A model generated the notes under the pieces. The model made no database searches, was not told the DNA's origin, and saw nothing but the letters and a program-made list of their open reading frames with translations. The position numbers were made by a program, and so were the translations under genes. This document shows, piece after piece, positions 1-14,128 of a stretch of 64,000 bases of DNA. The first letter of the stretch is position 1, and every line of letters begins with the position of its first letter. The stretch lies in NCBI RefSeq assembly GCF_000238275.3, contig NZ_AHCF03000003.1, positions 1,488,001 to 1,552,000 of the forward strand, written 5' to 3'. This DNA is from Pseudoalteromonas undina (GTDB lineage: Bacteria > Pseudomonadota > Gammaproteobacteria > Enterobacterales > Alteromonadaceae).

Positions 1-30
1 TTTATTGTTAAAACTTCAAGCGATCATCTC

Positions 31-660
31 ATGCTATTAACCATCGTTTATATTATAGGTATTACAGCAGAAGCCATGACCGGTGCTCTTAGCGCTGGGC
101 GCAGAAACATGGATTGGTTTGGTGTTATGTTAGTAGCCAGTGCCACAGCTATTGGTGGTGGTAGCGTACGAGATATTTTATTAGGTAACTACCCACTTAC
201 TTGGGTAAAACACCCAGAATATTTACTGATCACTTGCCTAGCCGGTATTGTTACCACTTGGTTGGCAAAATGGGTGGTTAAATTTAAAGGCATATTTATG
301 CGCCTAGATGCACTAGGTCTTGCTGCGTTTAGTATTATTGGCTGTCAAGTTGGACTTAATATGGGTTTGCACTATGGAATTTGTGTGGTCGCAGCTATAG
401 TAACAGGTGTATTTGGTGGATTATTACGAGATTTAATTTGTCGCCAAGCACCATTAGTACTTCATCATGAACTTTACGCAAGCGTAGCGCTTATAGTCGC
501 GTGTTTATACTTAGCGCTACACCACTACAACATTGATGACAATATCAGCGTGGTTGCAAGTTTAGTGGTAGGCTATTTAATTCGAATGGCATCGGTACGC
601 TTTAAGTGGCGCTTACCAACATTTAATTTATTAGAACCCGCTAATTTAAATAATGAGTAA
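31..660 (+). CDS. TRIC-type / UPF0126 (YadS-YicG family) membrane protein
   Basis: 209 residues, almost entirely hydrophobic, with about seven membrane segments. Two glycine-rich repeats carry the family signature: GGGSVRDILLG near residue 43 and GGLLRDLICR near residue 129, so the protein is an internal duplication, as is usual for UPF0126. Bacterial members are homologous to trimeric intracellular cation channels and are thought to conduct K+ or a similar ion across the inner membrane; the substrate is not visible here. Length fits the family (about 200). It is a single gene, convergent with the next small gene after a 12-bp gap. The family call is firm, the function is by homology only. 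Confidence 0.88.
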   Translation: MLLTIVYIIGITAEAMTGALSAGRRNMDWFGVMLVASATAIGGGSVRDILLGNYPLTWVKHPEYLLITCLAGIVTTWLAKWVVKFKGIFMRLDALGLAAFSIIGCQVGLNMGLHYGICVVAAIVTGVFGGLLRDLICRQAPLVLHHELYASVALIVACLYLALHHYNIDDNISVVASLVVGYLIRMASVRFKWRLPTFNLLEPANLNNE

Positions 661-672
661 TAACAGCAGCGG

Positions 673-912
673 TTAATGCCCACCTGCCCTAGCACTTTTA
701 AATAGCCCGAATACTTTTCGGGCTAACAAACTAACCACAAAAAGAACTCCCAAAGCAAAACACAGTATGCTCAAGGGCATAAACAAGCTTTCATGTAGAA
801 CACCATTATTATCAATATACTGATACATACTGTTTTCTATCAGCATAAAACCCGTGCCAAGCAATAAAAAGCAAACACTCAATGTGGCTGTTTTGTTTGT
901 AAAAAAGCGCAT
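673..912 (-). CDS. small two-TM membrane protein, unknown
   Basis: 79 residues with two hydrophobic segments (about 9-25 and 45-65) and a basic C-terminus. No family is recognised. A GC-rich inverted repeat (704-726) lies inside its last codons. It is convergent with the UPF0126 gene and separated from the upstream GNAT gene by 110 bp. Coding potential is supported by the membrane topology and the lack of any better frame, but no homologue can be named. Confidence 0.6.
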   Translation of the reverse strand: MRFFTNKTATLSVCFLLLGTGFMLIENSMYQYIDNNGVLHESLFMPLSILCFALGVLFVVSLLARKVFGLFKSARAGGH

Positions 913-1022
913 AATCTATCCATAACTATTTTATTAAATTGTCGGGATAGCAGTTTGAATGAGCGAATATTAATCTACAGTGACTGAGCAACATTAATTT
1001 TTTAAAATAAAAGTCACGCTCA

Positions 1023-1457
1023 TTAAACTAAGCTTTTAGACATATAATAAAACCTGTCGTCTGCTTTATCTATGCTGAAACCTGAACGTGTGTAAAGCTT
1101 GTGCGCAGGGCTTATTTTAAAAACCCGAAGCCTAAGTTGCATAGCACCTCTGTGCACAGCTAAACGAGAACACTCACTAATTGCTGCTGCACCAACACCT
1201 ATATTTTGAAACGCAGCATCTACTTGTAAGTCACGTATATAGCAACCCTCATCATCAAAAGCCAAGCGCATTGCACCCACTACATCGCCATTTAACAAAA
1301 CATCCCAATTTTCAAGGTCTGAAATTTGCTCACATATTTTAAGTTGCTGCCAATCAACGCCATAATGTTCATAATATCCACGCATATTGGTATAGGTTAA
1401 CTGTGCAGAAGCCATTAAATCGGCTGTGGGCTGATAACACATATTCATTATTGCCAT
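1023..1457 (-). CDS. GNAT-family N-acetyltransferase
   Basis: 144 residues. The central and C-terminal part has the GNAT layout: a strand with IRDLQVDAAFQNIGVGAAAI (about residues 73-92, the acetyl-CoA loop in a Q-x-x-G-x-G/A form), a following helix, then the typical LRVFKISPAHKLYTRSGF segment (about 109-126), where N-A-x-x-L-Y-x-x-x-G-F is the usual form. It transfers an acyl group from acyl-CoA to an unknown amine. It starts 15 bp from the region of the YidC-like gene stop, with no clear operon signal. The superfamily is secure; the substrate is unknown. Confidence 0.85.
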   Translation of the reverse strand: MAIMNMCYQPTADLMASAQLTYTNMRGYYEHYGVDWQQLKICEQISDLENWDVLLNGDVVGAMRLAFDDEGCYIRDLQVDAAFQNIGVGAAAISECSRLAVHRGAMQLRLRVFKISPAHKLYTRSGFSIDKADDRFYYMSKSLV

Positions 1458-1475
1458 TCCTTTGTTTAGCGACCT

Positions 1476-2126
1476 TTACAAAACTTGTTGTGCTTGCTGG
1501 TTTTTAAAATATCTATTTACTAATAATGACTGCAACAAGCTAGTACTACTTGATGCAGCCCAGTACAAACCAATTGCAGAAGGAAAGTTAACCAGAGTAA
1601 CAACACAAATAATTGCGGGAATTAGGAACAATAATGTGCTGGTTTGCTCTGCGCTACCAGGCATCATCATCATAGATAAATATGTAATAGCCCCCACTAG
1701 TAACGAAAGCGCAATATCAGGCTTTGCAATACTGGCAATCCAAGCAAACTTACTATTAAATACAATTTGTTGCAAAGCTTGAAAAGTTCCAAGGCCAAAT
1801 ACCCCTTGGCTTGCCATATTAGTCACACTTTTTTTATCGATAAACTTAATGTTGTGCTTTTTATACAGCGCCATAGTTAATTTTGCGATTTCGCTGGGCT
1901 GGTTTTTATAGTTGTTTTTTATGCTATCTAGCTCAGGTTTTAGTGCGGCAATTGCTTTTTTATTTCTAACCATATTAGCCATAGCAACAAGGTTAATCGG
2001 CATTAAAACTAATCGTCCAATAACGGTAAACAAAATAATTGCAACCGCTTGGCTTACGCCCACTTCTTGGGTAAAAAAGGTGATTGATTGCACAATAAAA
2101 TCAGTAAATAAATTCCAAATTTCCAT
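1476..2126 (-). CDS. short YidC/Oxa1-type membrane insertase paralogue
   Basis: 216 residues. The sequence aligns with the conserved C-terminal insertase core of YidC: TM2 with the groove arginine (VIGRLVLMPIN, about residues 36-46), the cytoplasmic helical hairpin (LKPELDSIKNNYKN and ALYKKHNIKFID), then further membrane helices ending in GLYWAASSSTSLLQSL. It lacks the large periplasmic P1 domain of gammaproteobacterial YidC and the rnpA/mnmE context, so it is a second, Oxa1-like copy rather than the housekeeping gene. A candidate sigma-70 promoter precedes it. Its role may be insertion of particular small membrane proteins (inference). Confidence 0.85.
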   Translation of the reverse strand: MEIWNLFTDFIVQSITFFTQEVGVSQAVAIILFTVIGRLVLMPINLVAMANMVRNKKAIAALKPELDSIKNNYKNQPSEIAKLTMALYKKHNIKFIDKKSVTNMASQGVFGLGTFQALQQIVFNSKFAWIASIAKPDIALSLLVGAITYLSMMMMPGSAEQTSTLLFLIPAIICVVTLVNFPSAIGLYWAASSSTSLLQSLLVNRYFKNQQAQQVL

Positions 2127-2155
2127 TTTAGTTTTCCTTTTAATATTATGTATTA

Positions 2156-2184
2156 AAAGTAATCATTGCGACATATTATGTCAA
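2156..2184 (-). promoter_or_regulatory. candidate sigma-70 promoter of the YidC-like gene
   Basis: Reading the - strand, TTGACA (2184-2179), a 17-bp spacer, and TACTTT (2161-2156) lie about 30 bp before the ATG of the YidC-like gene. The -35 is perfect, the -10 matches at only some positions. An AAGGAAAA ribosome-binding site follows before the start. Confidence 0.5.
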
Positions 2185-2266
2185 CAGTTTATTTTAAACT
2201 AAAAGAGATTTGCTGTGTTCGAGAGTCCACTTAAACGGGGAAAAGAGCAAATTCGAATCTAAAACT

Positions 2267-2707
2267 TTATTTGGCAGTGTGCTTTTTAATCCACCAGTTT
2301 GTAAATACTAAAACTAAAAAAATGCCTAAAAAGAAAAAATGCACTGCAACAAGAAAATAGTATGTCTGCGGACTTTGTTGGACAAAATAGTCAGTATTTC
2401 CTTTCCAAGAAATATTCCCCTCCGAAAAAGCATAATATAATTTGCTAGCTAAAATTATGCTGAGCAAAGATGTGATGACTTTTACGAAAACGAGCCTAGA
2501 AAAAAAGTCACGGTCTTTGAGAACTTGTCGTTCTTGAGGCTTGTTGGCCGCAACCTCAATCTGTTGGCAAATTTTAAAATACCGAAGTGGGTAAGCTTGC
2601 TGATCAATTGAGCTGCGCGCCTCCAATAACTCTTGGAGGCTATAGTTTTGGTAATCTGGCTCCATTAAGTATCCTGCGTAGATGCCTATAGATAATGACT
2701 CCCACAC
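2267..2707 (-). CDS. small membrane protein with N-terminal soluble helix, unknown
   Basis: 146 residues. The N-terminal part has the motif YSLQELLEARSSIDQQAYPLRYF (split here: YSLQELLEARSS, then IDQQAYPLRYF), a helix seen at the N-terminus of several uncharacterised gammaproteobacterial membrane proteins. Two hydrophobic segments follow (about 70-90 and 112-137), the tail being basic. No function can be assigned. It is the first of a block of AT-rich, small membrane-protein genes that runs to about 4.3 kb. Confidence 0.6.
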   Translation of the reverse strand: MWESLSIGIYAGYLMEPDYQNYSLQELLEARSSIDQQAYPLRYFKICQQIEVAANKPQERQVLKDRDFFSRLVFVKVITSLLSIILASKLYYAFSEGNISWKGNTDYFVQQSPQTYYFLVAVHFFFLGIFLVLVFTNWWIKKHTAK

Positions 2708-2923
2708 GGTGTTAGCTTAATTCAAAGCCAGAGCCATAATTAGTTTGTCAATTAACTAAACTACAAACGTTAACATGAATAAACATTCACATAAAGAATT
2801 CAATGACGCCCATCCTAACTGCCAGCTATAAACTTAATCATAATTAAATTCCTAAATACATTCTTACTTCTGTATATGTAAGAAATCCAATTATCTTATA
2901 AGTTTATTTTATTGAGCATACAC

Positions 2924-3280
2924 TTAAGTAATAACAGCAGATATTACTATTAATACCCCACTAAACATCAACCAAAAAAAAGCAAAAACAAACCACTTTT
3001 GAATATGTTTAGGTATACTCTGCCTTTTTTCAAACATTCCGTAACGCTTAGCATGAAAGGACCAAATAAAAACCGTAGCGTATTGTAGAATTCCGCTAGC
3101 GGATAAAAAGATGTTAAGGCTATAAAACTTAACACCATCATCAAGAGTTTCTTCGAGTAATGGTAACCACTTAGTTTTTAAGTAAATAACCAAACCAATC
3201 CAAATAAAAACACCTATACAACCACCGAAAAAAAAGTATGCTGAAATGACTTGAATGGAAGATGGATCAATTAATTGCAT
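2924..3280 (-). CDS. small membrane protein, tandem paralogue A
   Basis: 118 residues with three hydrophobic segments. It shares, position for position with the next upstream gene, the block D-D-G-x-x-FYSLNI, then G-I-L-x-YATVF and HAKRYxxFxKRQ-x-x-PKxxQ-x-WF. The two genes are therefore a tandem duplication, separated by 18 bp and probably cotranscribed. The charged HAKRY/KRQ segment between two membrane spans is the most conserved part. No known family is recognised and no attC site is found around it. Confidence 0.65.
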   Translation of the reverse strand: MQLIDPSSIQVISAYFFFGGCIGVFIWIGLVIYLKTKWLPLLEETLDDGVKFYSLNIFLSASGILQYATVFIWSFHAKRYGMFEKRQSIPKHIQKWFVFAFFWLMFSGVLIVISAVIT

Positions 3281-3298
3281 TAGTACAAGTGACCAACT

Positions 3299-3658
3299 TT
3301 AGCCTAACCCCAAATGTACAATCAAAACAGCAATAAAACATAAAGCAAACGTCACCATAAACAAGCAAAAATAGACGATAAACCATCGCTGAACACTTTT
3401 AGGTACTAACTGTCTTTTATCAAATAAGTCATACCGCTTTGCATGCCTGCCACAAAAGAAAACAGTAGCGTAATGCAATATTCCCATTCCAGCTGTTAGT
3501 ATGTTTAATGAATAAAAAGCCTTGCCATCATCAAGAATATTTTCCACATTTTTTAATTTTCTATTTTTAATAAAAAACAGCATCGGTGTTAATATTATAA
3601 AAAATAAAATAGAAATAGTAAGCCCTAAAGCGACTATAAAAAAATCGGGAAGGCTCAT
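3299..3658 (-). CDS. small membrane protein, tandem paralogue B
   Basis: 119 residues with three membrane segments, paralogous to the downstream neighbour (shared FYSLNI, YATVF, HAKRY and KRQ blocks). It is the upstream member of the pair and is preceded by an AAGGA-type ribosome-binding site directly before its ATG. The roughly 200 bp upstream (3659-3862) is AT-rich and shows no gene. Function unknown. Confidence 0.65.
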   Translation of the reverse strand: MSLPDFFIVALGLTISILFFIILTPMLFFIKNRKLKNVENILDDGKAFYSLNILTAGMGILHYATVFFCGRHAKRYDLFDKRQLVPKSVQRWFIVYFCLFMVTFALCFIAVLIVHLGLG

Positions 3659-3862
3659 CCTTTTTCCTTAACACTGTAAAAGAGCATATAGTGACAGCCA
3701 CCTTAACTTCTTAATGAACCTGCGCCACAAAATTTACCAACCCTAACATGACACTCATCACAAAGAAATTAAGATGAGTGTAAGCTTTGTTTTTATTGAA
3801 CCAACAATGTACACAGTAAACCTAATATTCAATTCACAAACAATCACACTTATCAAAAAAAT

Positions 3863-4337
3863 TTAATAAGCACGACAGAAAAATGCCTTACTATTGCTTA
3901 TTTTTAACCATAAGATAGTCAATAGTTGCAACACATATAGAAAAGTGAAGTACCCAAGGTATTTCCATAATAAGTACTTTGTACTATCGGGTGATGCAAT
4001 ATTAAAAGAAAATAAGCGGCCGTCCTTTATAACAAAGACTAAGGCCAGAAAAAGTAAACAACCCATTATATTTAAATAAGTTAAACGGTTAAGTTTATCA
4101 AGAATGAAAATGATAGGAATACCAATTACTGTATTACCCATATATGCAATCACCCCCCCCAAAAAAACAGATCATCTTATAAACTTCCCAGAGTCTACTT
4201 TGGGTGACTTCTAACTGTATAGAGAAAACACTAGCGAATAAAAATACAACGCCTAATGCCGGAAATATTATTAAAGGTGCGAATAGCAACATGCTTAAAT
4301 ATCTCAAAGCAACCTCCTTGCTATAAAAAAGCCGCAA
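3863..4337 (-). pseudogene. membrane protein gene split by a G8 tract (frameshift or phase-variable)
   Basis: The first frame (4337 to 4134, 67 codons) encodes two membrane segments and then runs into eight consecutive G's (C8 on the + strand, 4153-4160) preceded by seven T's. After the tract it reads a short tail to a stop. The next frame (from 4162 to 3863, 99 codons beginning with TTG inside the tract) continues with further hydrophobic segments. Removing one G joins the two frames into one 157-residue membrane protein with F-F-G-G-V-I-A at the junction. It could be a slipped-strand switch, a decayed gene or a sequencing error. No family is recognised. Confidence 0.7.
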
Positions 4338-4356
4338 TAACGGCGTACAATATTAG

Positions 4357-4518
4357 ATGGCTAAACATAGTGTGAGTGATTATATCAACGGATATTACAA
4401 CAACGTTAGGCCACATCATTATAATGCCCGTTTAGCACCAAATGAATCTGAGGTTAGATACAAAGACTCTAAAACTGTGGCCAAATTAGTTGACCCCTAT
4501 ACTTTAACGCTTTGCTAA
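4357..4518 (+). mobile_element. IS3-family transposase (OrfB) C-terminal remnant with IS end
   Basis: The + strand reads AKHSVSDYINGYYNNVRPHH followed by YNARLAPNESE, the classic C-terminal end of the IS3-family DDE transposase (Y-I-x-x-Y-N-x-x-R-P-H, then L-x-P-x-x-x-E). A stop codon sits directly upstream and nothing of the remainder is present. The segment TGTGGCCAAATTAGTTGACC (4476-4495) resembles an IS3-type terminal repeat. The frame runs on by chance to a stop in the adjacent attC. This is a dead fragment, and it lies 9 bp from the distal attC of the integron. Confidence 0.8.
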
Positions 4519-4598
4519 GCGGCAATAAAATAGCTGGCTAAAATTAGCGAGGAACGAGCAAAAGCCAGCTGTTTTTTGTCCGTTTAAGCAACTTGTTA
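4505..4598 (-). repeat. attC site 5 (distal end of array)
   Basis: On the - strand it starts TAACAAGTTGCTTAAACGG and ends CCGCTTAGCAAAGCGTTA, giving paired outer (TAAC/GTTA) and inner (GCTTAAACGG / CCGCTTAGC) arms. The central arms AGCTGGCT and AGCCAGCT also pair. 94 bp. It closes the HEPN-like cassette 5 and lies 9 bp from an IS3 remnant. Confidence 0.9.
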
Positions 4599-4601
4599 GA
4601 G

Positions 4602-5447
4602 CTATTTTTTAAAGGCTTTAATTATGGTCTCGAATGTAGTTAAATTTTTATAAGTAAAACAAAATAAAACAACGTAACAAGCAATACATTTATTTAAATC
4701 TATTACTGTAATTTCATTCTCTAACTTTCCGTGTGCAATTAGGTTTCGTATTTTTTTTACTTCACGTAATAAGCCTTGAAACTCTCCCCAGATTGGCACT
4801 TGTTTTAGATCGTCCGTAGCAAATGATTCTTTCGCAACAATTTTAACTTTTAAATCTAGTGCTAAGTGCTCTAGTGCATCATGAAGTTCTGTATGAATCT
4901 TCAGCTGAATTACATCAAGTTTACTGCGAATAATTGCTTCCATTGCGGAAAAGTACGTAAAAAAAGCCATTTTTATATTATTTTCAGATTCTAATAAATA
5001 TGCGTCAATAGCCAATTCTTTGTAGAGGCTTAAATTTACATAATCGCTTTTTAATAAGCCTGTTATGCAGATATCTGCTTCGGCATCCATGTCAATATCA
5101 GAGTAATCTCCCTGTAGGATACCTCTCAAAGTTACTTTTCTTTGACGTTCATTTACCTCTTCAATCTCATAGCTTAAACCTCGTTCGTCTCCTAAATCAG
5201 TATGTAAATCACCATCGATAACAAAGCCGTAATCCTCTAGGTTAGCATTCACAATGAACGAATAATCTGTCGATAAATCAATATCATCTTCTAGAAAGTA
5301 TTCTTTAAGTGAGAATCTATCATGTCGAATAAGATCAGGGTCTGGATAGGTATTGATCGTTACTCTTTCTGAGTGCTCACCTATTTCCTCAATTAAATCT
5401 AAATGTAAAATAGAACCGTCAGATATTCCTTGAATAATTTTTTGCAT
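4602..5447 (-). CDS. cassette 5: HEPN-like protein with RX4H motif
   Basis: 281 residues. The N-terminal half (1-145) is acidic and predicted mainly beta. The C-terminal half is helical and carries KKIRNLIAHGK, with R234-N235 and H239 forming the R-N-x-x-x-H motif of HEPN ribonucleases. It is preceded by a long helix (about 146-175) as in the HEPN four-helix bundle. HEPN proteins often act as RNA-cutting toxins or phage-defence effectors; activity here is inferred. It is the last gene of the array, with attC sites on both sides and an AGAGGTTAGGC ribosome-binding region. It could also be a non-catalytic HEPN binding protein. Confidence 0.7.
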   Translation of the reverse strand: MQKIIQGISDGSILHLDLIEEIGEHSERVTINTYPDPDLIRHDRFSLKEYFLEDDIDLSTDYSFIVNANLEDYGFVIDGDLHTDLGDERGLSYEIEEVNERQRKVTLRGILQGDYSDIDMDAEADICITGLLKSDYVNLSLYKELAIDAYLLESENNIKMAFFTYFSAMEAIIRSKLDVIQLKIHTELHDALEHLALDLKVKIVAKESFATDDLKQVPIWGEFQGLLREVKKIRNLIAHGKLENEITVIDLNKCIACYVVLFCFTYKNLTTFETIIKAFKK

Positions 5448-5467
5448 GCCTAACCTCTGGATAGCTC

Positions 5468-5558
5468 TAACGCCCGATTAACGGGTAAAAAATTGTGGGC
5501 TAAAATTGAGCGAAGCGAATAGCCCGCAAGTTTTTTATCCCTGTTGAATTGCTTGTTA
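5468..5558 (-). repeat. attC site 4
   Basis: 91 bp. On the - strand it starts TAACAAGCAATTCAACAGGG and ends CCCGTTAATCGGGCGTTA. The internal arms GCGGGCTA and TAGCCCAC pair around a loop with TTCGCTTCGCTC. It closes the TIR-like cassette 4. Confidence 0.9.
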
Positions 5559-5568
5559 TACGCACAAA

Positions 5569-6384
5569 CTACACACTGATTTTGTAACCAGCCGCTTTAA
5601 GTTCTCTTATTATTGCGTATGCTTGAGGATCAACTGAACCATCTACCTTTTTATAAACTAGACCGTTCAAATCACTTGGCAAAACCACATCGCCTTTATG
5701 CAAGCAACAAACACGATTTCGTCCTAATTTACCTACAAAATACCCAAACTCAAATATGACATTGGGCCTAGCTCTATACTCAATTACTTTATCCGGTTCA
5801 GGGATATTAATTTGATCAGCTGTATAACTAATTTCGTCAGGGGTTAACAAAATGAAAGCAAAACCTACATCACTATGTTTTTCAAATTTTTCAATCACAG
5901 TAGCGCCTTCATCGGCCTCACGATGAAGGACAACTGGCACTAAACCTATCTCGTGTAAAAAGCGTTCAACATCAGTTTTTAAACTTTCATCATGACCATG
6001 CACAACAAAAATTTTATTAGAAAGTGCTGCTGATGTCGGGGTGCTCTTTTCTTCTTTAAGCTCTCCATAAACATCATTTTTTAAAGTCGTTGCCAATATT
6101 TTTAATGCTTTAACTAAATTAGATTTTGCTATCTCAAATTTATCAGGCCCATTACCTTCGGTGTATTGCGTAAGCCCTTCGGCAATTAGAGACATTGCAG
6201 GAGAATTATCAGAAAGGTGTTTGGATACTATATTTTGAGCTCTTATTTTAAATATCCCCCATTCCGGAGAGTCAGGGCCACCATAACGTCCTTGATAATC
6301 ACCTACAGCTAAACAAAAATTTTGAAAAGTGAAATTTTCACCTTCCTCAATTAGTCTCTCGACTATCTCAATCTGACTTTCCAT
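5569..6384 (-). CDS. cassette 4: TIR-like (CAP12/Pycsar-type) domain protein
   Basis: 271 residues. The region from about 122 to the end is a TIR-like nucleotide-binding domain of the type found in CBASS/Pycsar effectors (PF10137-like): KIFVVHGHD (124-132), GLVPVVLHREADEGATVIEK with E165 as the likely catalytic glutamate, FILLTPDE (177-184), and FEFGYFVGKLGR (211-222). Such domains hydrolyse NAD+ when activated. The N-terminal ~120 residues are helical and unlike STING or a cyclic-nucleotide sensor, and no cyclase gene is adjacent, so the trigger is unknown. It is a single-gene cassette between attC 3 and attC 4. The domain call is firm, the defence role inferred. Confidence 0.85.
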   Translation of the reverse strand: MESQIEIVERLIEEGENFTFQNFCLAVGDYQGRYGGPDSPEWGIFKIRAQNIVSKHLSDNSPAMSLIAEGLTQYTEGNGPDKFEIAKSNLVKALKILATTLKNDVYGELKEEKSTPTSAALSNKIFVVHGHDESLKTDVERFLHEIGLVPVVLHREADEGATVIEKFEKHSDVGFAFILLTPDEISYTADQINIPEPDKVIEYRARPNVIFEFGYFVGKLGRNRVCCLHKGDVVLPSDLNGLVYKKVDGSVDPQAYAIIRELKAAGYKISV

Positions 6385-6428
6385 AGCTCTCTCTATGATT
6401 AAATTTAACGCTAAACTTTAGGTGCGTA

Positions 6429-6525
6429 TAACGCTTTGCTAAGAGGCTAAAATGGTTGGCTGGCTTTTTTGCGGTACTTTGCAAAAAACGAGCAAACTGT
6501 TTTAGTCCTTTTAAGCAACTTGTTA
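6429..6525 (-). repeat. attC site 3
   Basis: 97 bp. On the - strand it begins TAACAAGTTGCTTAAAAGGA and ends CCTCTTAGCAAAGCGTTA. Its outer arms are closest to those of attC 5, so these two sites form one sub-family. It closes the exported-protein cassette 3. Confidence 0.9.
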
Positions 6526-6532
6526 GCACTAT

Positions 6533-7036
6533 TTATTGAAGTTGTAAGGAGATGCGAGAATCACCTTTTTCAGATTTTTGGCTTTTAGATGAAGGAACTC
6601 CTACTTTAACTCCGTTCACTTTATAAGTAATAACTCTGCTATCTGTAGTCTTAGGGATTAACAAGTTATGTGGAGCACCTGTAGCATAGTAGTCTAGTGC
6701 TTCATTTGTACCGTTATATGTATTACTAACAAATGTATATGCAACATCATATACAGGAGATTTTGGAGTGGAACTTTCTGCTTGTGTTACATAAATAAGA
6801 TTAAAGTTACTTTCATTTTCTTTATTAATATCATTACTAATATGAGTAACGCCAACTTTAGAGTTTCTAAATAATTCAATATTATCAAAAGTTAGCTCTC
6901 TCATGGATTGAGCATCTCCAGCTAAAATTGAGACGTGAATTTTCAATTCTAATGGTAATGTTAATTCAGTTGCTGCGTTTACTGTATATGAAAATAAAGT
7001 AGATAAACAAAGGCTGGTCAATATTAATTTTTTCAA
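6533..7036 (-). CDS. cassette 3: exported protein, unknown
   Basis: 167 residues with a clear Sec signal peptide (MKKLILTSLCLSTLFSYTVNA, cut after A-N-A near residue 21). The mature part is polar and predicted beta-rich, with no cysteines. It has no recognised motif, and ends in a basic, serine-rich stretch (SSKSQKSEKGDS). It is probably periplasmic. It is a single-gene integron cassette whose function cannot be inferred from sequence. Confidence 0.7.
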   Translation of the reverse strand: MKKLILTSLCLSTLFSYTVNAATELTLPLELKIHVSILAGDAQSMRELTFDNIELFRNSKVGVTHISNDINKENESNFNLIYVTQAESSTPKSPVYDVAYTFVSNTYNGTNEALDYYATGAPHNLLIPKTTDSRVITYKVNGVKVGVPSSKSQKSEKGDSRISLQLQ

Positions 7037-7087
7037 GAAATTATTCCTTTAAATGTTAAATGATATTCTAGATGTAAGATATAGTGC

Positions 7088-7181
7088 TAACGCCCGCTTA
7101 AGCGGACAAAAATTGTTGGTTATAATGTGGAGCGAAGCGGAACCTAAGCAACTGTTTTTGTTCCGTTTAAAGCTCTTGTTA
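7088..7181 (-). repeat. attC site 2
   Basis: 94 bp. On the - strand it begins TAACAAGAGCTTTAAACGGA and ends TCCGCTTAAGCGGGCGTTA. The 5' end overlaps the TAA stop of cassette 2, as is common in integron cassettes. Confidence 0.9.
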
Positions 7182-7949
7182 GCTCACTGCTGATAGTTGA
7201 GTACTGAGTCTATTAAGTGGTTGAAGCTCTGACAAAAATGAATCGTTGAGATAATGTATCAGATCTTTAGATTCCTCATACATTACAGTAGCTTTTTCTA
7301 GAGTGCATTGTTCTTGCCAACTAGCACTAACGGTTGGGACAGATTCAGAAACGGATCGACTTTCAGCAGAGCTAAAACTTGCATCTACATGTTCAGTTCT
7401 ACCATGTGCGAGAGCATTTCTAGCCTCAAAAAGTTGATCATTTACCTGCAACCATTTATCGTATTCAGCTTGGGGAGTATTACATGCTTTAAGAACAGAT
7501 TTGAGCTTATCCTTTGTTGAAAACTTGTACACTCGTTCCATTGCATTGAATTCATTTGAACTCATTATATCTTTGTCAAATGCGTCCCTTTGCTTTCTAT
7601 GAACCGATTTCCTAAGATACTTCAACATTATGTCTGCTTGCGATTTGTAGCCTAAAATCTCCGCAAGTTTTACATTAAAAGGTTCATTTTTGTTTAAGTC
7701 TTTCATCAATTTCAAAGTATTGTGGATTTCTTCTTGATCACTATCGTCTAAATACTTCGATGCACGCGACTCATAGTCATAGATTCTTTCACAAAGGTAG
7801 TTTAGGTAGCTTTCAACCATAAATGCAGTTAGCGCAACACTTGTTAAACCAGCACACTGAATGCCAAAATTTTCTGCTGCTAATGTTCTCTCCACTGATG
7901 CAGAAAAATATGCATGAGCATAGACAGTACCTTTCGATTGTCCTTTCAT
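7179..7949 (-). CDS. cassette 2: helical HEPN-like protein with RX4H motif
   Basis: 256 residues, predicted all-helical. The segment FEARNALAHGR (175-184) carries R177-N178 and H182, the R-N-x-x-x-H motif of HEPN RNases. A long hydrophobic helix at 33-54 fits the first bundle helix. The start ATG has a good GGAGATAAA ribosome-binding site. The stop codon overlaps attC 2. RNase/toxin or host-defence function is an inference from the motif. It does not resemble cassette 5 outside that motif, so the two arrived independently. Confidence 0.65.
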   Translation of the reverse strand: MKGQSKGTVYAHAYFSASVERTLAAENFGIQCAGLTSVALTAFMVESYLNYLCERIYDYESRASKYLDDSDQEEIHNTLKLMKDLNKNEPFNVKLAEILGYKSQADIMLKYLRKSVHRKQRDAFDKDIMSSNEFNAMERVYKFSTKDKLKSVLKACNTPQAEYDKWLQVNDQLFEARNALAHGRTEHVDASFSSAESRSVSESVPTVSASWQEQCTLEKATVMYEESKDLIHYLNDSFLSELQPLNRLSTQLSAVS

Positions 7950-7983
7950 TTTATCTCCATAGGAAGAAATTTAACCGGTGAGC

Positions 7984-8047
7984 TAACGCCGCCATAATTT
8001 GACCGCCTGAAGCGCAGCGTAAGGCGGTCAAATTGATGGCTTTGTTA
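7984..8047 (-). repeat. attC site 1
   Basis: 64 bp, the shortest of the set. On the - strand it starts TAACAAAGCCATCAATTTGA and ends ATTATGGCGGCGTTA. The arms CAATTTGACCGCCT and AGGCGGTCAAATT pair almost perfectly around a small loop. It overlaps the stop of cassette 1. Confidence 0.9.
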
Positions 8048-8608
8048 GCTGCCAAACCCGAGCAACTTCTTAAAATCGATGCCGATACCACTGATATTTG
8101 GCTGAAGAATGAAAGCGTCTGCTGCAGAGCGCCAGCCACTTTTTTTCTTTATTTCTTTTTGAACCGAAAAATTCGTAAGTTCTTTCTTTTCTTCGATATC
8201 TTTAAATATTTTATGAATCAGTGCAACTACGTCACTCGTGGTTTTACAACATTTCTTTAGCGGAATAAGGAGAAGCTTGTCATCAAGCTCACCACTTTCT
8301 CTCCATGCATGATTATTTTCTTTAAAGTATCTAGGGTGCAATGTAGTAATCATTAATGCGGGCAGCATTTCTTCACCATGCTCACCATTGATTCCATGAA
8401 AGGAAAACACCTCATTTTCAAAATGAATCGGCTCTACACCTGCGATTACAACAGACTTAGATTTCGAGGCCAGCCTAGCCATATTGGTGAAGTTCGCACG
8501 CATAGCTTCTGACAACGGCTCATGCCAGCCGTAATCGAGCATGTAAATGAAATATTCCCTTTCCGCATCAGCAGGGAGGTTACCTAAATTATGAACATGT
8601 AAACCCAT
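8045..8608 (-). CDS. cassette 1: unknown soluble protein
   Basis: 187 residues, first gene after attI and so closest to the expected cassette promoter. It is soluble, mixed alpha/beta, with a central hydrophobic strand KSVVIAGVEP (about 51-60) and a lysine-rich helix (132-155). No family is recognised. The ribosome-binding site GGAGAAA lies 5 bp before the ATG (inside ATGGAGAAATCGGC). Its TAA overlaps attC 1. The first position suggests recent acquisition in the integron model. Confidence 0.65.
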   Translation of the reverse strand: MGLHVHNLGNLPADAEREYFIYMLDYGWHEPLSEAMRANFTNMARLASKSKSVVIAGVEPIHFENEVFSFHGINGEHGEEMLPALMITTLHPRYFKENNHAWRESGELDDKLLLIPLKKCCKTTSDVVALIHKIFKDIEEKKELTNFSVQKEIKKKSGWRSAADAFILQPNISGIGIDFKKLLGFGS

Positions 8609-8624
8609 GCCGATTTCTCCATAG

Positions 8625-8640
8625 CAGCTAACAGCTTATT
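8625..8640 (-). other. attI-like recombination site
   Basis: On the - strand AATAAGCTGTTAGCTGC contains the core GTTAGCT, identical in form to the 3' end of the attC sites (GCGTTAGCT at attC 1). It sits just before the first cassette and after the intI upstream region, where attI is expected. Recombination would occur at the G-TT step (about 8631/8632). The accessory integrase-binding sites are not resolved. Confidence 0.65.
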
Positions 8641-8699
8641 CAAAGGCTCTAAACCCGCAAGTTGTAGACATAAAATCCTTTGATTTTTTAATACTTTAA

Positions 8700-8728
8700 G
8701 TTTAACTCTGTATCTAAATGTAAATCAA
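8700..8728 (-). promoter_or_regulatory. candidate cassette promoter (Pc)
   Basis: On the - strand TTGATT (8728-8723), a 17-bp spacer and TTAAAC (8705-8700) point toward the cassette array, about 70 bp before attI. Position and direction fit a Pc promoter; the match to the consensus is moderate. Confidence 0.4.
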
Positions 8729-8812
8729 GGGATTTATATTTGTTGTTTTTTTGTTGTTGTAAAATACAAGAAATAATCCCGCGAGTTGTTGAAAAAAAAC
8801 TAAATACAACTA

Positions 8813-8828
8813 CTGTTTATATATACAG
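8813..8828 (+). promoter_or_regulatory. LexA (SOS) box of the integrase gene
   Basis: CTGTTTATATATACAG is a perfect CTGT-N8-ACAG LexA site with an AT-rich centre that may double as the -10 of the intI promoter. It lies just before the integrase reading frame. SOS control of integron integrases through such a box is established for Vibrio and class 1 integrons. Confidence 0.85.
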
Positions 8829-8882
8829 CACCAACTAGAGCAGATTATCGCTTCTATATTTTTAGAATCAATCCGTGACTTT

Positions 8883-9812
8883 ATGATAACGCGTCGTTAT
8901 GCCAAGCGTACTATAGACACTTATCAATATTGGATAAAATTTTACATTTTATACCATGGTAAAAAACATCCGGCGCAATTGGCAGAGTCGGAGGTTGAGC
9001 AATTCTTATCTTATTTAAGTAATCAGCGTAATGTTGCAATGAAAACTCAGGCAACGGCTTTAAATGCTTTGGTATTTTTATACCGTCATATTATTAGTCG
9101 ACCGTTATCACTTGAAATGAATTTTAATAAATCACTCGTGTCACCTAAATTACCTGTAGTACTGACCCGTGAAGAAATACAGCGTTTATTATTGGCAATG
9201 GATCCAAAGTATAAACTTATCGCTCAGATACTTTACGGTAGTGGTCTACGTTTAATGGAAGCTGTAAGGCTACGGGTAAAAGATGTCGATTATGACTATG
9301 TCTCATTAATGATTTGGCAGGGCAAAGGCAATAAAAACCGCAGAGTAACATTAGCACTCGAACTACTGCCGTTTTTGCGCAGCCAAAGTCACTTGGTAAA
9401 TGACTACTGGCATCGAGATAAACAAGCAACAGACTATGCCGGTGTCTGGCTTGCGAATGCATTAGCTAAAAAATACCCAGCGGCTCCTTATGAAATGAGC
9501 TGGCAATATTTGTTTCCTTCTGCCCAGTTAAGCATGGACCCAGAAAGTAAAAAGCTGCGTCGCCACCATATTGATGAAACAACAGTTCGTAAAGCAATTA
9601 AACAGGCAGCAAAGCTGGCAAAAATTCAAAAAAATGTTACCTGCCATACACTACGGCACTCGTTCGCTACCCACTTACTTGAATCTGGTGCAGATATACG
9701 CACTTTGCAAGAACAACTCGGCCATAGCGATGTTCGCACCACGCAAATATATACGCATGTTTTACAACAAGGCGCGAACGGGGTAATTAGCCCACTAAGT
9801 AAAATATTATAA
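8883..9812 (+). CDS. intI: integron integrase IntI (tyrosine recombinase)
   Basis: 309 residues from the first ATG. The N-terminal SAM-like domain (about 1-85) is followed by the catalytic domain with R123 (YGSGLR), H255 and R258 (CHTLRHS), H281 (LGHSDVRTTQIYTH) and nucleophile Y290. The extra IntI-only segment is present (about 190-215, with KYPAAPYEMSWQYLFPS), which separates it from XerC/D. It resembles Vibrio cholerae IntIA throughout. The same frame continues upstream of 8883 with IFLESIRDF, matching the IntIA N-terminus, but has no ATG, GTG or TTG between 8793 and 8883. Translation may therefore begin at a rare ATT/ATC near 8844-8847, or the protein is about 12 residues short. It acts on attI and attC in the array that runs away from it. 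Confidence 0.95.
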   Translation: MITRRYAKRTIDTYQYWIKFYILYHGKKHPAQLAESEVEQFLSYLSNQRNVAMKTQATALNALVFLYRHIISRPLSLEMNFNKSLVSPKLPVVLTREEIQRLLLAMDPKYKLIAQILYGSGLRLMEAVRLRVKDVDYDYVSLMIWQGKGNKNRRVTLALELLPFLRSQSHLVNDYWHRDKQATDYAGVWLANALAKKYPAAPYEMSWQYLFPSAQLSMDPESKKLRRHHIDETTVRKAIKQAAKLAKIQKNVTCHTLRHSFATHLLESGADIRTLQEQLGHSDVRTTQIYTHVLQQGANGVISPLSKIL

Positions 9813-9897
9813 AGTATGAATTTAAAAGACTTTTATCTAATCTAATAAACTTTAAAAATGAGCTATAACTTGGGGCAATGCAATAAAAACATTTCTA

Positions 9898-9930
9898 CAA
9901 AAAGGGGCTAACGCATGTTAGTCCCTTTTG
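9898..9930. terminator. bidirectional terminator between intI and the GH13 gene
   Basis: The arms AAAGGGGCTAAC and GTTAGTCCCTTTT form a hairpin with a GCAT loop, flanked by A and T runs. It separates the convergent integrase and alpha-glucosidase/amylase genes. Confidence 0.7.
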
Positions 9931-9942
9931 TGTGTGTTTTAT

Positions 9943-11655
9943 TTACAGTGTGTTATTCAGTAACAACAAACCATAACCAGCGAGTTGCTCGCCATTGAGG
10001 TCGTGTTGCCAGTTTGGCGTTAAATCATCGCGTTTGATGCTGCTGACGCTTTGCGGGTTAGCGGTTAAGTTAAACACAAACATACTTTTACTGCCGTTTA
10101 ACTCGCGGGTTATTTCAACTAGGCCATTGCTATGCTGTGTTAATTCATAACTGCCTTTAATGCCCAGCTCTGGGCGCTGTTTTTTTAGTGCGATTAAGTG
10201 CTGATATAAACGCCACAGTGAATTAGATTGTGCTTGTTGCGTTTTTACATTGCGATCAGCAGCATTAATTTGCTGTGCTAAATATTCAGGCCACCACTGG
10301 GTGTAGTTATCACCAAACAGTTCAGCCTGCTCAACCCAACTTGTTTGAGCTTGAGTAAAACCAGCTTGGTTGCTGTTATTCCACTGCATTGGTGCGCGTT
10401 TATACACATCGTGACCTGTGCCACCTTGTGTTAGGCCAATCTCTTCACCGTAATAAATATACGGCGTGCCAGGAGAGCTAAATAACATGGCAGCAGCAAG
10501 TTTTGCTTTATCGTCGTGCTCTGCAAGTTGATAAGCAACACGTTGTTGGTCGTGATTAGTTAAAAACGGTGCAAAAAAATCAAGCGGTGCAGTTGAATCA
10601 ATACGCTGTTGTAAGTTTTGTTTAAGCACATTGGCATCAACTGTACTCACTTGTTGATTAGACTGCATGGTGCCAAATTGTGCTTCACCACTGGCATCGG
10701 GTTTTAATAAGCCCAGTATTTTATAGCCCACTTCAAAATCAAAGCCTTGGTCGAGGCCTTTACCTTCGCCAAAGTATTTTGCTGCAACGGGAATGTCTGC
10801 CCAAGCTTCACCTACTAAGTACGCCTCTGGATCAACGCTTTTTACGTATTGGTTAAAGTGCTGCCAATATGCAATGGTTTCGTCGGTATCGGCTTGCGCA
10901 TCTGCGCCACCTTCCATTGCAAAACGAACTGCGTCTAATCTAAACCCTGCAACGCCTTTATCAAGCCAAAACTTAGCCATTTTTTCCATTTCGGCAACAA
11001 CATCAGGGTGGCGTAAATTCAAGTCTGGTTGGCTCGCTCCAAACGCACCATAGTAATACTGCTGACGTGTTTCATTCCAATGCCATACTGCGTCGGGTTG
11101 GTCGTTATTACTCCAAGCATGTCCCCAACCACTTCCGGCTTTTGGCATATCGTCGCGCCAAATAAAGTAATCTGCATAAGGGGCTTCATTATTTGCTGAA
11201 CGCTGAAACCATTCATGGTTACTTGATATATGGTTTATAACTAAATCAAGTATGACTTTCATGCCTTTGTCGTCAGCAGCTTTTATAAAGGCTTCAAACT
11301 CTGCCATGCTGCCGTAGTCGTTTTCTACTTGGTAAAATTCAGTAAAATCATAGCCATGATAAGAAGGTGCTTCAAACATCGGGGTTAACCACAATGCGTT
11401 AACGCCAAGCTCTTGTAGATACGGGAGCTTTTGGGTCATACCATTAAAATCGCCATGACCATCAGCATCGCTGTCGTAAAAACTGCGGGGCCAAATTTGG
11501 TAAAAAATGGCGTTTTCCCACCACGGATTTGCTTGTTGTTCAGTATTTAGTGGCGATGTTTCGGTGTTATTAGTGACGTTATTTAATGATGGTGCGCTTT
11601 GGCAGCCTGTTAGCATGATTGCTAATGCTAATGCGCTCAAGGTAAATGTTTTCAT
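9943..11655 (-). CDS. GH13 alpha-glucosidase/alpha-amylase-family lipoprotein
   Basis: 570 residues. Signal peptide with lipobox LTGC (Cys18), so it is a membrane-anchored lipoprotein. The GH13 barrel starts at WWENAIFYQIWPRSFYDSD (about 45). Region I is DLVINH (about 137), region II GFRLDAVRF with the nucleophile Asp (about 242), region III VGEAW with the acid Glu (about 280), and region IV NHDQQR (about 366). Motif style and length are nearest oligo-1,6-glucosidase/alpha-glucosidase enzymes. It is the last gene of the alpha-glucan cluster, 70 bp after the GH15 gene with a strong hairpin between them. It probably trims oligosaccharides in the periplasm. Exact specificity is not determined. 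Confidence 0.9.
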   Translation of the reverse strand: MKTFTLSALALAIMLTGCQSAPSLNNVTNNTETSPLNTEQQANPWWENAIFYQIWPRSFYDSDADGHGDFNGMTQKLPYLQELGVNALWLTPMFEAPSYHGYDFTEFYQVENDYGSMAEFEAFIKAADDKGMKVILDLVINHISSNHEWFQRSANNEAPYADYFIWRDDMPKAGSGWGHAWSNNDQPDAVWHWNETRQQYYYGAFGASQPDLNLRHPDVVAEMEKMAKFWLDKGVAGFRLDAVRFAMEGGADAQADTDETIAYWQHFNQYVKSVDPEAYLVGEAWADIPVAAKYFGEGKGLDQGFDFEVGYKILGLLKPDASGEAQFGTMQSNQQVSTVDANVLKQNLQQRIDSTAPLDFFAPFLTNHDQQRVAYQLAEHDDKAKLAAAMLFSSPGTPYIYYGEEIGLTQGGTGHDVYKRAPMQWNNSNQAGFTQAQTSWVEQAELFGDNYTQWWPEYLAQQINAADRNVKTQQAQSNSLWRLYQHLIALKKQRPELGIKGSYELTQHSNGLVEITRELNGSKSMFVFNLTANPQSVSSIKRDDLTPNWQHDLNGEQLAGYGLLLLNNTL

Positions 11656-11677
11656 TTCAGCCTCGTTATTATTGTAA

Positions 11678-11717
11678 TAACTAACATAGCCGTATTTTAC
11701 TACGGCTATGTTAGTTA
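11678..11717 (-). terminator. strong intercistronic hairpin between GH15 and GH13 genes
   Basis: A perfect 17-bp inverted repeat (TAACTAACATAGCCGTA and its complement) with a 6-nt loop. In the direction of transcription it is followed by TTATTACAATAATAA, not a clean U-run. It could terminate part of the transcripts or shield the upstream mRNA from 3' exonucleases, lowering expression of the last gene. Confidence 0.6.
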
Positions 11718-11725
11718 GTTTGCGG

Positions 11726-14128
11726 TTATTTTAGTGCTTTAGTTACCACTGGGTAATGATCCCATACCTGCTTGTCGCTTAGTGAGCGCACTAGCTTAAC
11801 GTATTCCGCATGTGTCCACGCCAATGGTGTGGCCGAGTTAGTACCCTCGCCTAACGTGTAACCCGCTTTATTAATGCCTACACCATCCCATACTTGTTCA
11901 GGTAGCATCATGCCTTGGTTAGCAAATTGCTCTAGGCCTTTTACATAACTATTTTTAATAGCCTGCTGTTTTGTTGCATCTAAACTGTTATTCGCACTTG
12001 CGGCGGCAATTTCGTAATGACCACGTTCACCGGTAAAAAATGGCCAAACTCGCCCACGTTGCCCTGGGCTATTTTTTCCACCTTGCGCATAGTTAGCGCC
12101 CGTTACTTCGTCTTCACCGTATCCGTCATTACCATAGCGGCGGTAGCCTGCAAATGTGCCGCTGCCGTCAGTAAACTCAAAGCTGTATTTAACTTGTAGG
12201 TTATCGGTTAGGGTTTCGTCATCATATTCTGGCAGTGTTTTGACTATGCTGGGCGCTAGTGCATCACGCACGCCATAGCGAACGAGTTCTAAAAATCCAC
12301 CATCGAGTATTTGCTTTTTATTAAACCCTTCACGGCCATTATTAGCGTTAATTTTAGTATTTGAATTGGCGTCTTTGTCTTGGCCAATACGAATAAAATA
12401 TTCACCATCAGAGGCACTCGACTCTAAATTACCAGCGGTTGTAAACATTAATTTTTCAATATCATTGTTATAACGCTTAGCTGTATTTAGGTAACGTGTT
12501 GCATTGGCATCATCACCTGCTAGTTTAGCGATATCGGCTGCAGTAATTAAACCGGCAACAACCGCGGCGGTGGTTGATGGAGAATACCCTTCTTGCTCTT
12601 CCCAGCGTTCTTGCTGAGTAGCTGGCGGCGTTATTTGTGCGTCGTTCCATAGAATGTTTGCACGGCCACCCTCAACTAAAAAGTCTGCTGCGGGCTTTAA
12701 CATACGGCTATACCAATCGGTGAGCTCTGCATCACTTAATACACCTGCCTGATGGAGTTTCCATGCAAGCATGAGTGGCATTGCTGTTTGGTCTAGCTGT
12801 ACGCCTACCCATTCTAGTTCACCATCAACATGTGTTTTTTGTAAAAACCACCCTGTATCGCCTTTATTGCCTGGGGTTTTGCTGTTTACTTGAACTTTTT
12901 CAAGGTATTCGAATGCGGTTTTAGCGGTCGCATTATCGCCCATGGCCATGAACGCCATGGCAACTTGATAAAAGTCGCGCACCCATACCGCTTTGTAACC
13001 AGTAGAGCCTGTTTTAGCCGATACGGTTTCGCCCCAAGGGTTAGATAGTGAGGCAATAAGCGCACCTGCATGAGTTTTATCTTCTTGCGCTTTAAGTACC
13101 ATTGCACTGGTGTAAAGTAACTTGCCGTTATCTGCGGTTTGTTCGCTCATGTTATTTAGCGGGGCAAGGCTTTGCAGGTAGTCTTGCCAACCAAGCGCTT
13201 CGCCTTTACCGTTGTAATTATCAAGCACCGCTTGGTAACCTTTGGCTAACGTAGCTTGGCCTTGTTTAAAGCTGGTTTGTTCGCTATTACCAAAGCTTAG
13301 GGTTAAATCGAACTGGCTGTTTTCACCAATTTCACCCAGCTCTGCTAGTAGGCTAACATTACCCGATTGTTCACCGGTATTTTTATAAACCTGAGTAAGC
13401 TGCTGAGTTGTTTTAAGCTGGCTTAAACCATCGCTCACACCTATAAAACCAACACTTGTTTGTTTAAATGGCTGAGCACCTTGCAATGAAAGGTAGCTGT
13501 TGTCTTGCCATGCAAGCAGTCCTTGTTCTGTGGTTTTAGCAAAATCATCAAGGCCGTTATTGTCAACATACGGGTTAACGCTTACGTATGCCTTAACGCC
13601 TTCAAGCTCGGTATTAAAAATACTGCGTACAAATAAGCTTTGCCCATCAGGATCGGTAAATATGTGTTTTTCGAGGCTAAAGCGGCCTTGTTTATCTTTA
13701 CTTACTACTTTGTAAGCTAATGATAACGGGCGGCCTTTATCGTCTTTGTATAAGTAGTCAATGGTAACGTCTAAATCGTCAGCTTCTGTGACTGTAAAAT
13801 CCTTTCCTACTACCACAAATTGCATGTCTTTAATTTGCGCTTGGTGAATAAGCCCAAACATTGTTTCGGTGATCATACCTTTAGCAATTGAAAACCATAC
13901 TTTTGAAACCGCTCCTGTAGGGGCCTCATCACTGTAATGGCCATTTTGATATTGCTCAAATGATGTGCCAATACCGGTTTTACCTGCATAGGCCCAAAAT
14001 GGATCTGCCCCAGGGGCTCCCGGTGCCGATACCTGAATTACAGCGCTGTTTGATGGCTCTTGCTGCGCGCCACAAGCTGTTAAACCAAGCATTAATAAAC
14101 TGGTGGTAATTGTATTTAATTTTTTCAT
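11726..14128 (-). CDS. GH15 glucan 1,4-alpha-glucosidase-type lipoprotein
   Basis: 800 residues. Lipobox LTAC at about residue 19. The N-terminal ~290 residues are a beta-sandwich as in bacterial glucodextranase/glucoamylase (N-domain, with DPFWAYAGKTGIGTS). The (alpha/alpha)6 catalytic domain follows, with VDGELEWVGVQLDQTA near 435 and WEEQEGYSPST near 508 (general-acid region) and the second catalytic Glu expected in the C-terminal part. It releases glucose from the non-reducing ends of alpha-glucans. It lies 36 bp after the MFS gene, likely in the same operon. It is anchored in the envelope and so acts before the inner-membrane carrier. Confidence 0.9.
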   Translation of the reverse strand: MKKLNTITTSLLMLGLTACGAQQEPSNSAVIQVSAPGAPGADPFWAYAGKTGIGTSFEQYQNGHYSDEAPTGAVSKVWFSIAKGMITETMFGLIHQAQIKDMQFVVVGKDFTVTEADDLDVTIDYLYKDDKGRPLSLAYKVVSKDKQGRFSLEKHIFTDPDGQSLFVRSIFNTELEGVKAYVSVNPYVDNNGLDDFAKTTEQGLLAWQDNSYLSLQGAQPFKQTSVGFIGVSDGLSQLKTTQQLTQVYKNTGEQSGNVSLLAELGEIGENSQFDLTLSFGNSEQTSFKQGQATLAKGYQAVLDNYNGKGEALGWQDYLQSLAPLNNMSEQTADNGKLLYTSAMVLKAQEDKTHAGALIASLSNPWGETVSAKTGSTGYKAVWVRDFYQVAMAFMAMGDNATAKTAFEYLEKVQVNSKTPGNKGDTGWFLQKTHVDGELEWVGVQLDQTAMPLMLAWKLHQAGVLSDAELTDWYSRMLKPAADFLVEGGRANILWNDAQITPPATQQERWEEQEGYSPSTTAAVVAGLITAADIAKLAGDDANATRYLNTAKRYNNDIEKLMFTTAGNLESSASDGEYFIRIGQDKDANSNTKINANNGREGFNKKQILDGGFLELVRYGVRDALAPSIVKTLPEYDDETLTDNLQVKYSFEFTDGSGTFAGYRRYGNDGYGEDEVTGANYAQGGKNSPGQRGRVWPFFTGERGHYEIAAASANNSLDATKQQAIKNSYVKGLEQFANQGMMLPEQVWDGVGINKAGYTLGEGTNSATPLAWTHAEYVKLVRSLSDKQVWDHYPVVTKALK

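What the first reader, a model, noticed from the sequence alone, without database searches (positions are those of the whole stretch)
4505..9812. Compact chromosomal integron with defence-type cassette cargo
Seen: an IntI with the integron-specific extra segment, an attI-like site and five attC sites, each after a single ORF. Three of five cassettes carry domains common in phage defence: TIR-like (cassette 4) and HEPN-like with RX4H motifs (cassettes 2 and 5). Known: chromosomal integron cassettes of Vibrio have been reported to hold many anti-phage genes. Inference: this array is a small defence store. The N-terminal parts of the TIR and HEPN proteins match no sensor I know, so they may be new single-gene systems.
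Basis: partly seen in the sequence, partly recalled or inferred. Interest (0 to 1): 0.85.

Follow-up and report, generated by a model that had tools for sequence, protein, structure and literature searches.

The report
Small integron swapping bacterial defence genes
This is a genuine five-cassette gene-capture array in a bacterial chromosome; three of its five genes look like toxins that bacteria use against viruses, and close relatives carry different genes at the same spot.

Summary
In detail: a small chromosomal integron with IntI (TIGR02249, 449 bits), a LexA-like box, an attI junction at 8632 and five single-ORF cassettes, each closed by an attC. An attC model built from another species' array finds all five and nothing else in the window. 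Five congeneric genomes with IntI at least 95% identical match up to attI and differ after it; in two, both flanks match, so the whole array was exchanged.

Cassette 4 is a TIR protein, but it matches the PADLOC candidate PDC-S35 over its whole length, so it is not new. Cassette 5 is modelled as a beta-sandwich plus HEPN domain with an invariant RX4H; a beta-rich HEPN N-terminus was tabulated in 2013. Cassette 2 is HEPN-like by motif and weak profile hits; its fold was not modelled. Cassettes 1 and 3 show no defence signature. One sister's array is all defence-like, including an ABC-3C/Lamassu-like three-gene cassette; the others' are not. Integrons as defence stores were published in 2025. 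No activity is shown, and this IntI lacks the start codon its relatives use.

The parts
8883..9812 (+). intI, integron integrase (309 aa from the first ATG; the frame is open back to 8793)
   Evidence: TIGR02249 449.3 bits, cut-off 265; 95-99% identical relatives in five congeneric genomes
8847..8849 (+). position of the start codon used by relatives: ATG in five sister genomes (and in a second, broken copy in one of them), ATC here
8811..8830 (+). LexA-like box TACTGTTTATATATACAGCA upstream of intI; CTGT-N8-ACAG kept in 6 of 6 orthologous integrons
   Evidence: pattern written after seeing the site; 0.01 expected; the bare core CTGT-N8-ACAG occurs twice in the window, 0.71 expected
8629..8846 (-). 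attI region, nearly the same in six orthologous integrons up to the G|TT junction at 8632/8631
8045..8608 (-). cassette 1 ORF, 187 aa, orphan family; thioredoxin-like topology in a medium-confidence model; no known defence domain
7981..8050 (-). attC of cassette 1 (folding strand is +)
7179..7949 (-). cassette 2 ORF, 256 aa, HEPN-like, RX4H R177-H182
7085..7184 (-). attC of cassette 2
6533..7036 (-). cassette 3 ORF, 167 aa, TTG start, signal-peptide-like N-terminus by eye, no family found
6428..6527 (-). attC of cassette 3
5569..6384 (-). cassette 4 ORF, 271 aa, TIR (CAP12/Pycsar type), PADLOC candidate PDC-S35; Glu212 in NVIFEFG aligned with a Glu of Cap12 proteins
5465..5562 (-). attC of cassette 4
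4602..5447 (-). cassette 5 ORF, 281 aa: beta-sandwich (about 22-136) + HEPN (about 139-269), RX4H R234-H239
4503..4599 (-). attC of cassette 5, last of the array
4357..4518 (+). short ORF with an IS3-transposase-like C-terminal remnant in the flank at the array end
   Evidence: NF033516 E 6e-4, 19.1 bits, below its cut-off of 160

Best explanation
A small chromosomal integron platform with fast-changing cargo, which at present holds three probable defence effectors. SHOWN: an IntI frame with a LexA-like box, an attI, and five attC-bounded single-gene cassettes; relatives keep the platform and change the cargo. INFERRED: DNA damage or incoming DNA releases LexA, and IntI recombines folded bottom-strand attC at attI. 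Cassette 4 would be a TIR NADase triggered by an unknown phage cue through its N-terminal part. Cassettes 5 and 2 would be HEPN dimers that cut RNA when triggered. All three would work by stopping growth or killing the infected cell (abortive infection). Cassettes 1 and 3 are unknown cargo. Current IntI output may be reduced, since the start codon used by its relatives is changed.
Confidence: 0.62

Rival explanations
1. The HEPN and TIR cassettes are stress or dormancy toxins, or array-stabilising addiction genes, not phage defence.
For: Anantharaman et al. 2013 proposed that integron-cassette HEPN proteins act as dormancy-inducing RNases (passages). HEPN domains pair with MNT antitoxins elsewhere in that paper (passages).
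Against: Each cassette holds one ORF, and no MNT or other antitoxin family was hit by the five ORFs. Cassette 4 belongs to a PADLOC phage-defence candidate family. The G068 array at the same site carries recognised defence-type genes.
Confidence: 0.2
2. The three defence-type cassettes are a chance draw; the array is ordinary mixed cargo with no bias to defence.
For: Only 3 of 5 here; no PADLOC hit in the G092, G050 and G048 cassette ORFs scanned; 1 of 10 scanned ORFs in G012. Reported active numbers elsewhere are at least 16 of 179 cassettes (88 of unknown function were tested) and 9 of 57 tested (passages of PMC12409362).
Against: Over the six orthologous arrays about 6 of 16 cassettes are defence-type (3 of 5 here, 3 of 3 in G068), but that criterion (profile hit or HEPN motif) is looser than a phage assay, so the fractions cannot be compared strictly.
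Confidence: 0.3
3. The integron is becoming a relic: IntI is poorly translated here and the array no longer moves.
For: The start codon used by relatives is ATC in this genome; other congeners hold broken or partial IntI copies.
Against: The frame is otherwise open with catalytic motifs and 98-99% identity to two sisters that keep the ATG; the cargo differs completely from those sisters, so exchange was recent on that scale.
Confidence: 0.3

Closest known systems
Chromosomal integrons as defence stores in Vibrio (Darracq et al. 2025; Getz et al. 2025; neither held; known here through passages of the review PMC12409362)
   Same: Chromosomal IntI/attI/attC platform with many unknown cassettes, some anti-phage.
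   Different: Five cassettes instead of more than 20; other genus; no activity tested.
PADLOC candidate PDC-S35 (TIR, PF10137)
   Same: Cassette 4 matches model PDLC05005 over residues 3-270 of 271 at 2.8e-73.
   Different: Nothing found that sets it apart; its N-terminus is covered by the model.
CBASS Cap12 / Pycsar PycTIR
   Same: Shared TIR segment with the NV-FE-G glutamate.
   Different: No STING-like or cyclic-nucleotide-binding domain hit; 33.9 bits against a Cap12 cut-off of 450.
HEPN families MAE_28990/MAE_18760 with a beta-rich N-terminus (MAE_18760-NTD1, Anantharaman et al. 2013, passages)
   Same: Cassette 5: beta-rich part of similar length followed by a HEPN domain; 9 of 12 family members hit PF18737 at E<=0.1.
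   Different: Best E 8.7e-5; not compared with the paper's NTD1 sequence. H-type-lectin likeness not mentioned there ('lectin' 0 occurrences in the main text).
Integron cassette HEPN (PDB 3jrt)
   Same: HEPN-type protein carried in a cassette.
   Different: 3jrt not among the hits of profiles A2 or A3 at E<=5; sequence comparison only.

Membership tests
Integron | IntI of the integron-specific tyrosine recombinase subfamily | tested here: met
   TIGR02249 449.3 bits over cut-off 265
Integron | attC sites with folding bottom strand behind each cassette | tested here: met
   5 of 5
Integron | attI beside intI at which cassettes enter | tested here: met
   six orthologous integrons diverge at the same place
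Integron | recombination activity of this IntI | not testable with these tools
   start codon changed; needs an assay
Large sedentary chromosomal integron (more than 20 cassettes) | cassette number above 20 | tested here: not met
   5 attC in the window
PDC-S35 | full-length match to the PADLOC model | tested here: met
   2.8e-73, residues 3-270 on 3-258 of 264
CBASS Cap12 | score over the equivalog cut-off | tested here: not met
   33.9 bits against 450
HEPN, cassette 5 | RX4-6H motif | tested here: met
   R234/H239 invariant in 12 of 12
HEPN, cassette 5 | HEPN helical fold | tested here: met
HEPN, cassette 2 | RX4-6H motif | tested here: met
   R177/H182 invariant in the 29 aligned of 32 found
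HEPN, cassette 2 | HEPN helical fold | not tested
HEPN/MNT toxin-antitoxin | adjacent MNT partner | tested here: not met
   single-ORF cassettes, no MNT hit among the five ORFs
MAE_18760-NTD1 fusions | homology to the NTD1 sequence of the 2013 paper | not tested
   only length and beta content compared
Integron cassette HEPN (3jrt) | sequence homology to 3jrt | tested here: inconclusive
   not listed at E<=5 for A2 and A3
Thioredoxin fold, cassette 1 | thioredoxin topology over residues 1-141 | tested here: inconclusive

The most novel reading that the evidence does not exclude
Cassette 5 is a self-contained phage sensor-killer of a new make: an H-type-lectin-like beta-sandwich fused to a HEPN RNase. 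The sandwich would recognise a phage structural component (its nearest folds include a pyocin fibre and phage tailspikes) or hold a dimer inactive until phage products appear. It would sit in an SOS-linked integron that exchanges whole defence sets between sister species, including a three-gene ABC-3C system carried as one cassette in G068.
Probability: 0.12. Interest if true: 0.7.

Novelty: new member of a known kind. Interest (0 to 1): 0.45.

Why it matters
It extends the 2025 finding of defence stores in Vibrio integrons to a compact integron of another genus. It also gives a natural experiment: nearly identical flanks and attI with different cargo in sister species, so each array can be tested against the same phages. 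Two HEPN proteins and a small orphan family are ready candidates for assays. [quoted passage not shown]

Tried and rejected
Conserved neighbours of cassette 1 relatives: 53 loci, many phyla by record title, no neighbour family in more than 4 loci, so no function by association. PADLOC on 31 cassette 1 family members (of 110 found): 0 hits. tblastn of cassette 1 in plasmids and phages and of cassette 2 in plasmids: no match. Cassette 5 in plasmids: 6 weak relatives (22-26% identity, 81-98% of the query) in Rhizobium, Agrobacterium, Ensifer and Sphingobium records; of the two neighbourhoods read, one held a type I endonuclease-methyltransferase fusion gene nearby, the other no annotated defence gene. 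Genome-contig scan with the cassette 5 alignment: 169 pattern matches, no relative. Cassettes 5 and 2 in 295 genomes of the order: 1 and 3 genomes, own included. Profile comparison of the two HEPN families: probability 29%, the RX4H parts aligned. Promoter scans: near the shuffled expectation. Rfam at gathering threshold: no match in the window. tRNA: none. Foldseek of cassette 5 in the PDB and viral libraries: no E<=0.001; H-type lectins recur in both lists. The idea that cassette 4 is a CBASS Cap12 was dropped. The idea that the G096 trypsin-like cassette is a Lamassu effector was not pursued (25.7 bits).

Rows left out before counting. Sister arrays: I chose one to five ORFs per array, those between attI and the last attC found; IS-like and short overlapping ORFs were dropped. 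Not scanned: L062 4143-4637 (overlapping) and 5896-6533 (two ORFs beyond the last attC found, a toxin-antitoxin-like pair by eye), L065 137-976 (beyond the last attC found), L063 16958-17488. L063 (broken IntI copy of G092; two ORFs scanned, no hit) is outside the 16-cassette count. In G012, 10 ORFs were scanned; 8526-9158 and 9218-9625 of L089 lie inside the array and were not. Protein alignments: 29 of 32 for cassette 2 (P0032, P0033, P0044 left out as short), 12 of 12 for cassette 5, 31 of 110 for cassette 1. Against 'rare in the genus': the 108 genomes are one per species held; outside them the protein search lists a P. rubra relative of cassette 1 (63%) and a P. tetraodonis relative of cassette 2 (34%). 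Cassette lengths were first computed from cut positions that I had typed, three of them off by one; one search recomputes them and they are the ones given.
Full report
WHAT IS THERE. The window is G000:C3:1488001-1552000 of a 4.03 Mb genome. No call names the organism; I take it for a Pseudoalteromonas (inference from protein relatives). At 8883-9812 (+) lies an integron integrase, TIGR02249 449.3 bits over a cut-off of 265. On the other strand, running away from it, lie five single ORFs, each closed by an attC. The five sites fold as long hairpins; the + strand (bottom strand of the array) folds better than the other in 5 of 5, with z-scores of -7.5 to -3.1. A covariance model from the five sites finds 11 attC in an array of another congener, G012; a second model from those 11 alone finds all five window sites at E 6e-20 to 3e-5 and no other site in the window at E<=0.1. 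Cassettes are 645, 896, 659, 961 and 963 bp.

PLATFORM AND CARGO. IntI relatives at 95-99% identity occur in five congeners: G096, G068, G092, G050, and G048 (matched from residue 19 on). In all six genomes the DNA between intI and the array is nearly the same up to a GTT junction (window 8632; GTA in G096) and differs from there on. In G096 window bases 1-4505 and 8626-12324 match at about 97%; in G068 the left-flank pieces 6-2271 and 3739-4428 and the stretch 8629-12021 match at 95-97%. Between them only attC-like stretches match at E<=1e-5, apart from short flank pieces. Among 108 congeneric genomes (one per species held, own included), cassette 1 has a relative in 2 (43% identity in the other, G011), cassette 3 in 1, cassette 4 in 2 (E<=1e-60), cassette 2 in 1 and cassette 5 in 1. 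Outside those genomes the protein search lists a P. rubra relative of cassette 1 (63%) and a P. tetraodonis relative of cassette 2 (34%). The cassette 4 relative in G012 (52% identity) lies between attC sites of that genome's integron, and a cassette 2 relative in G176 lies directly behind an attC. Full-length cassette 4 relatives in G360 (61%) and G199 (58%) have no attC found nearby, so the gene also lives outside integrons.

SOS LINK AND A WEAK POINT. A LexA-like box, TACTGTTTATATATACAGCA, lies at 8811-8830 (the bare core CTGT-N8-ACAG occurs twice in the window with 0.71 expected). CTGT-N8-ACAG is kept before intI in all six orthologous integrons, not in the broken second copy of G092. SOS control is known for other integrases (a title in the reference list of PMC3710099; otherwise recalled). 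In this genome the ATG used by the five relatives reads ATC at 8847-8849; the first usual start is the ATG at 8883, 12 codons on. IntI may thus be made poorly here. A sequencing error cannot be excluded.

CASSETTE 4. TIR of the CAP12/Pycsar type (PF10137, 5.2e-35, residues 124-248). A glutamate (212, NVIFEFG) aligns with Cap12 proteins; that this Glu is catalytic in Cap12 is recalled. Likely mechanism: NAD+ cleavage after an unknown trigger. Relatives of the TIR part are common in plasmids (1142 records with a match, 2 of them covering at least 80% of the query).

CASSETTE 2. 31 relatives plus itself, some from Vibrio, Shewanella, Moritella, Psychromonas, Marinomonas and Pseudoalteromonas records. 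In the 29 aligned, R177 and H182 are invariant. Profile hits to HEPN families are weak but many: 24 of 29 to PF18735 and 10 of 29 to PF18737 at E<=0.1. In G248 a 71% identical relative sits 122 bp upstream of a caspase-like peptidase (PF00656, 9.3e-18). The fold was not predicted.

THE SISTER ARRAYS. In G068 the same site holds three cassettes. The first carries CTD9 (2.2e-32), MC5 (5.9e-46) and an LmuB-like ATPase (2e-42), an ABC-3C/Lamassu-like trio with one attC behind it. The second carries a SIR2-like, ThsA-like protein (9.7e-20 and 1e-21; PDB ThsA 5.1e-8). The third carries a SAVED-HNH-like N-terminal part (3.8e-22). The scanned cassette ORFs of G092 (3 cassettes), G050 (1) and G048 (3) give no PADLOC hit at E<=0.01, and G096 (1) gives only a weak one; in G012 1 of 10 scanned ORFs hits. 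So about 6 of 16 cassettes over the six orthologous integrons are defence-type by profile or HEPN motif, all in two of the six; by PADLOC profile alone 4 of 16. That fits a defence-leaning but mixed store.

WHAT IS KNOWN. The review PMC12409362 (passages) reports that at least 16 of 179 V. cholerae integron cassettes (88 of unknown function tested) and 9 of 57 tested V. parahaemolyticus cassettes protect against phages, that mobile integrons carry phage-resistance cassettes too, and that larger systems of more than two genes were absent from integrons. HEPN in integron cassettes was noted in 2013 (passages). DefensePredictor (PMC13092281, passages) validated other HEPN-bearing systems. Searches for PDC-S35, RiboL-PSP and MAE_28990, and integron with HEPN/TIR or Lamassu listed, in titles and abstracts, no paper on these cassettes; the library lacks most subscription papers and all bioRxiv preprints.

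VERDICT. It is a new member of a known kind, interesting mainly as a natural experiment and for the beta-sandwich HEPN protein.

Noticed in passing
L061 3393-8976 (G068): Sister integron whose three cassettes are all defence-like; the first is a three-gene ABC-3C/LmuB-type set with one attC, although systems of more than two genes were reported absent from integrons.
   Followed up: partly
window 8847-8849: Start codon of IntI reads ATC here while five sister genomes have ATG; may weaken the integrase or be a sequencing error.
   Followed up: partly
L093 8621-11022 (G248): Relative of the cassette 2 HEPN protein sits 122 bp upstream of a caspase-like peptidase; a protein with a similar start lies about 5 kb from the relative in G176 (L092 13679-15217, by eye).
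   Followed up: partly
L094 9125-11402 (G011): Cassette 1 relative directly upstream of a DUF6119 protein (455 bits).
   Followed up: no
L091 8119-8934 (G199): Full-length relative of the cassette 4 TIR protein (58% identity) sits between what look by eye like histidine-biosynthesis genes, an odd place.
   Followed up: no
L063 12515-17500 (G092): Second, broken copy of the integrase region with its own attC sites about 30 kb from the intact one.
   Followed up: no
window 4357-4518: Remnant resembling the end of an IS3 transposase at the distal end of the array; its part from about 4429 on has no match in G068.
   Followed up: partly
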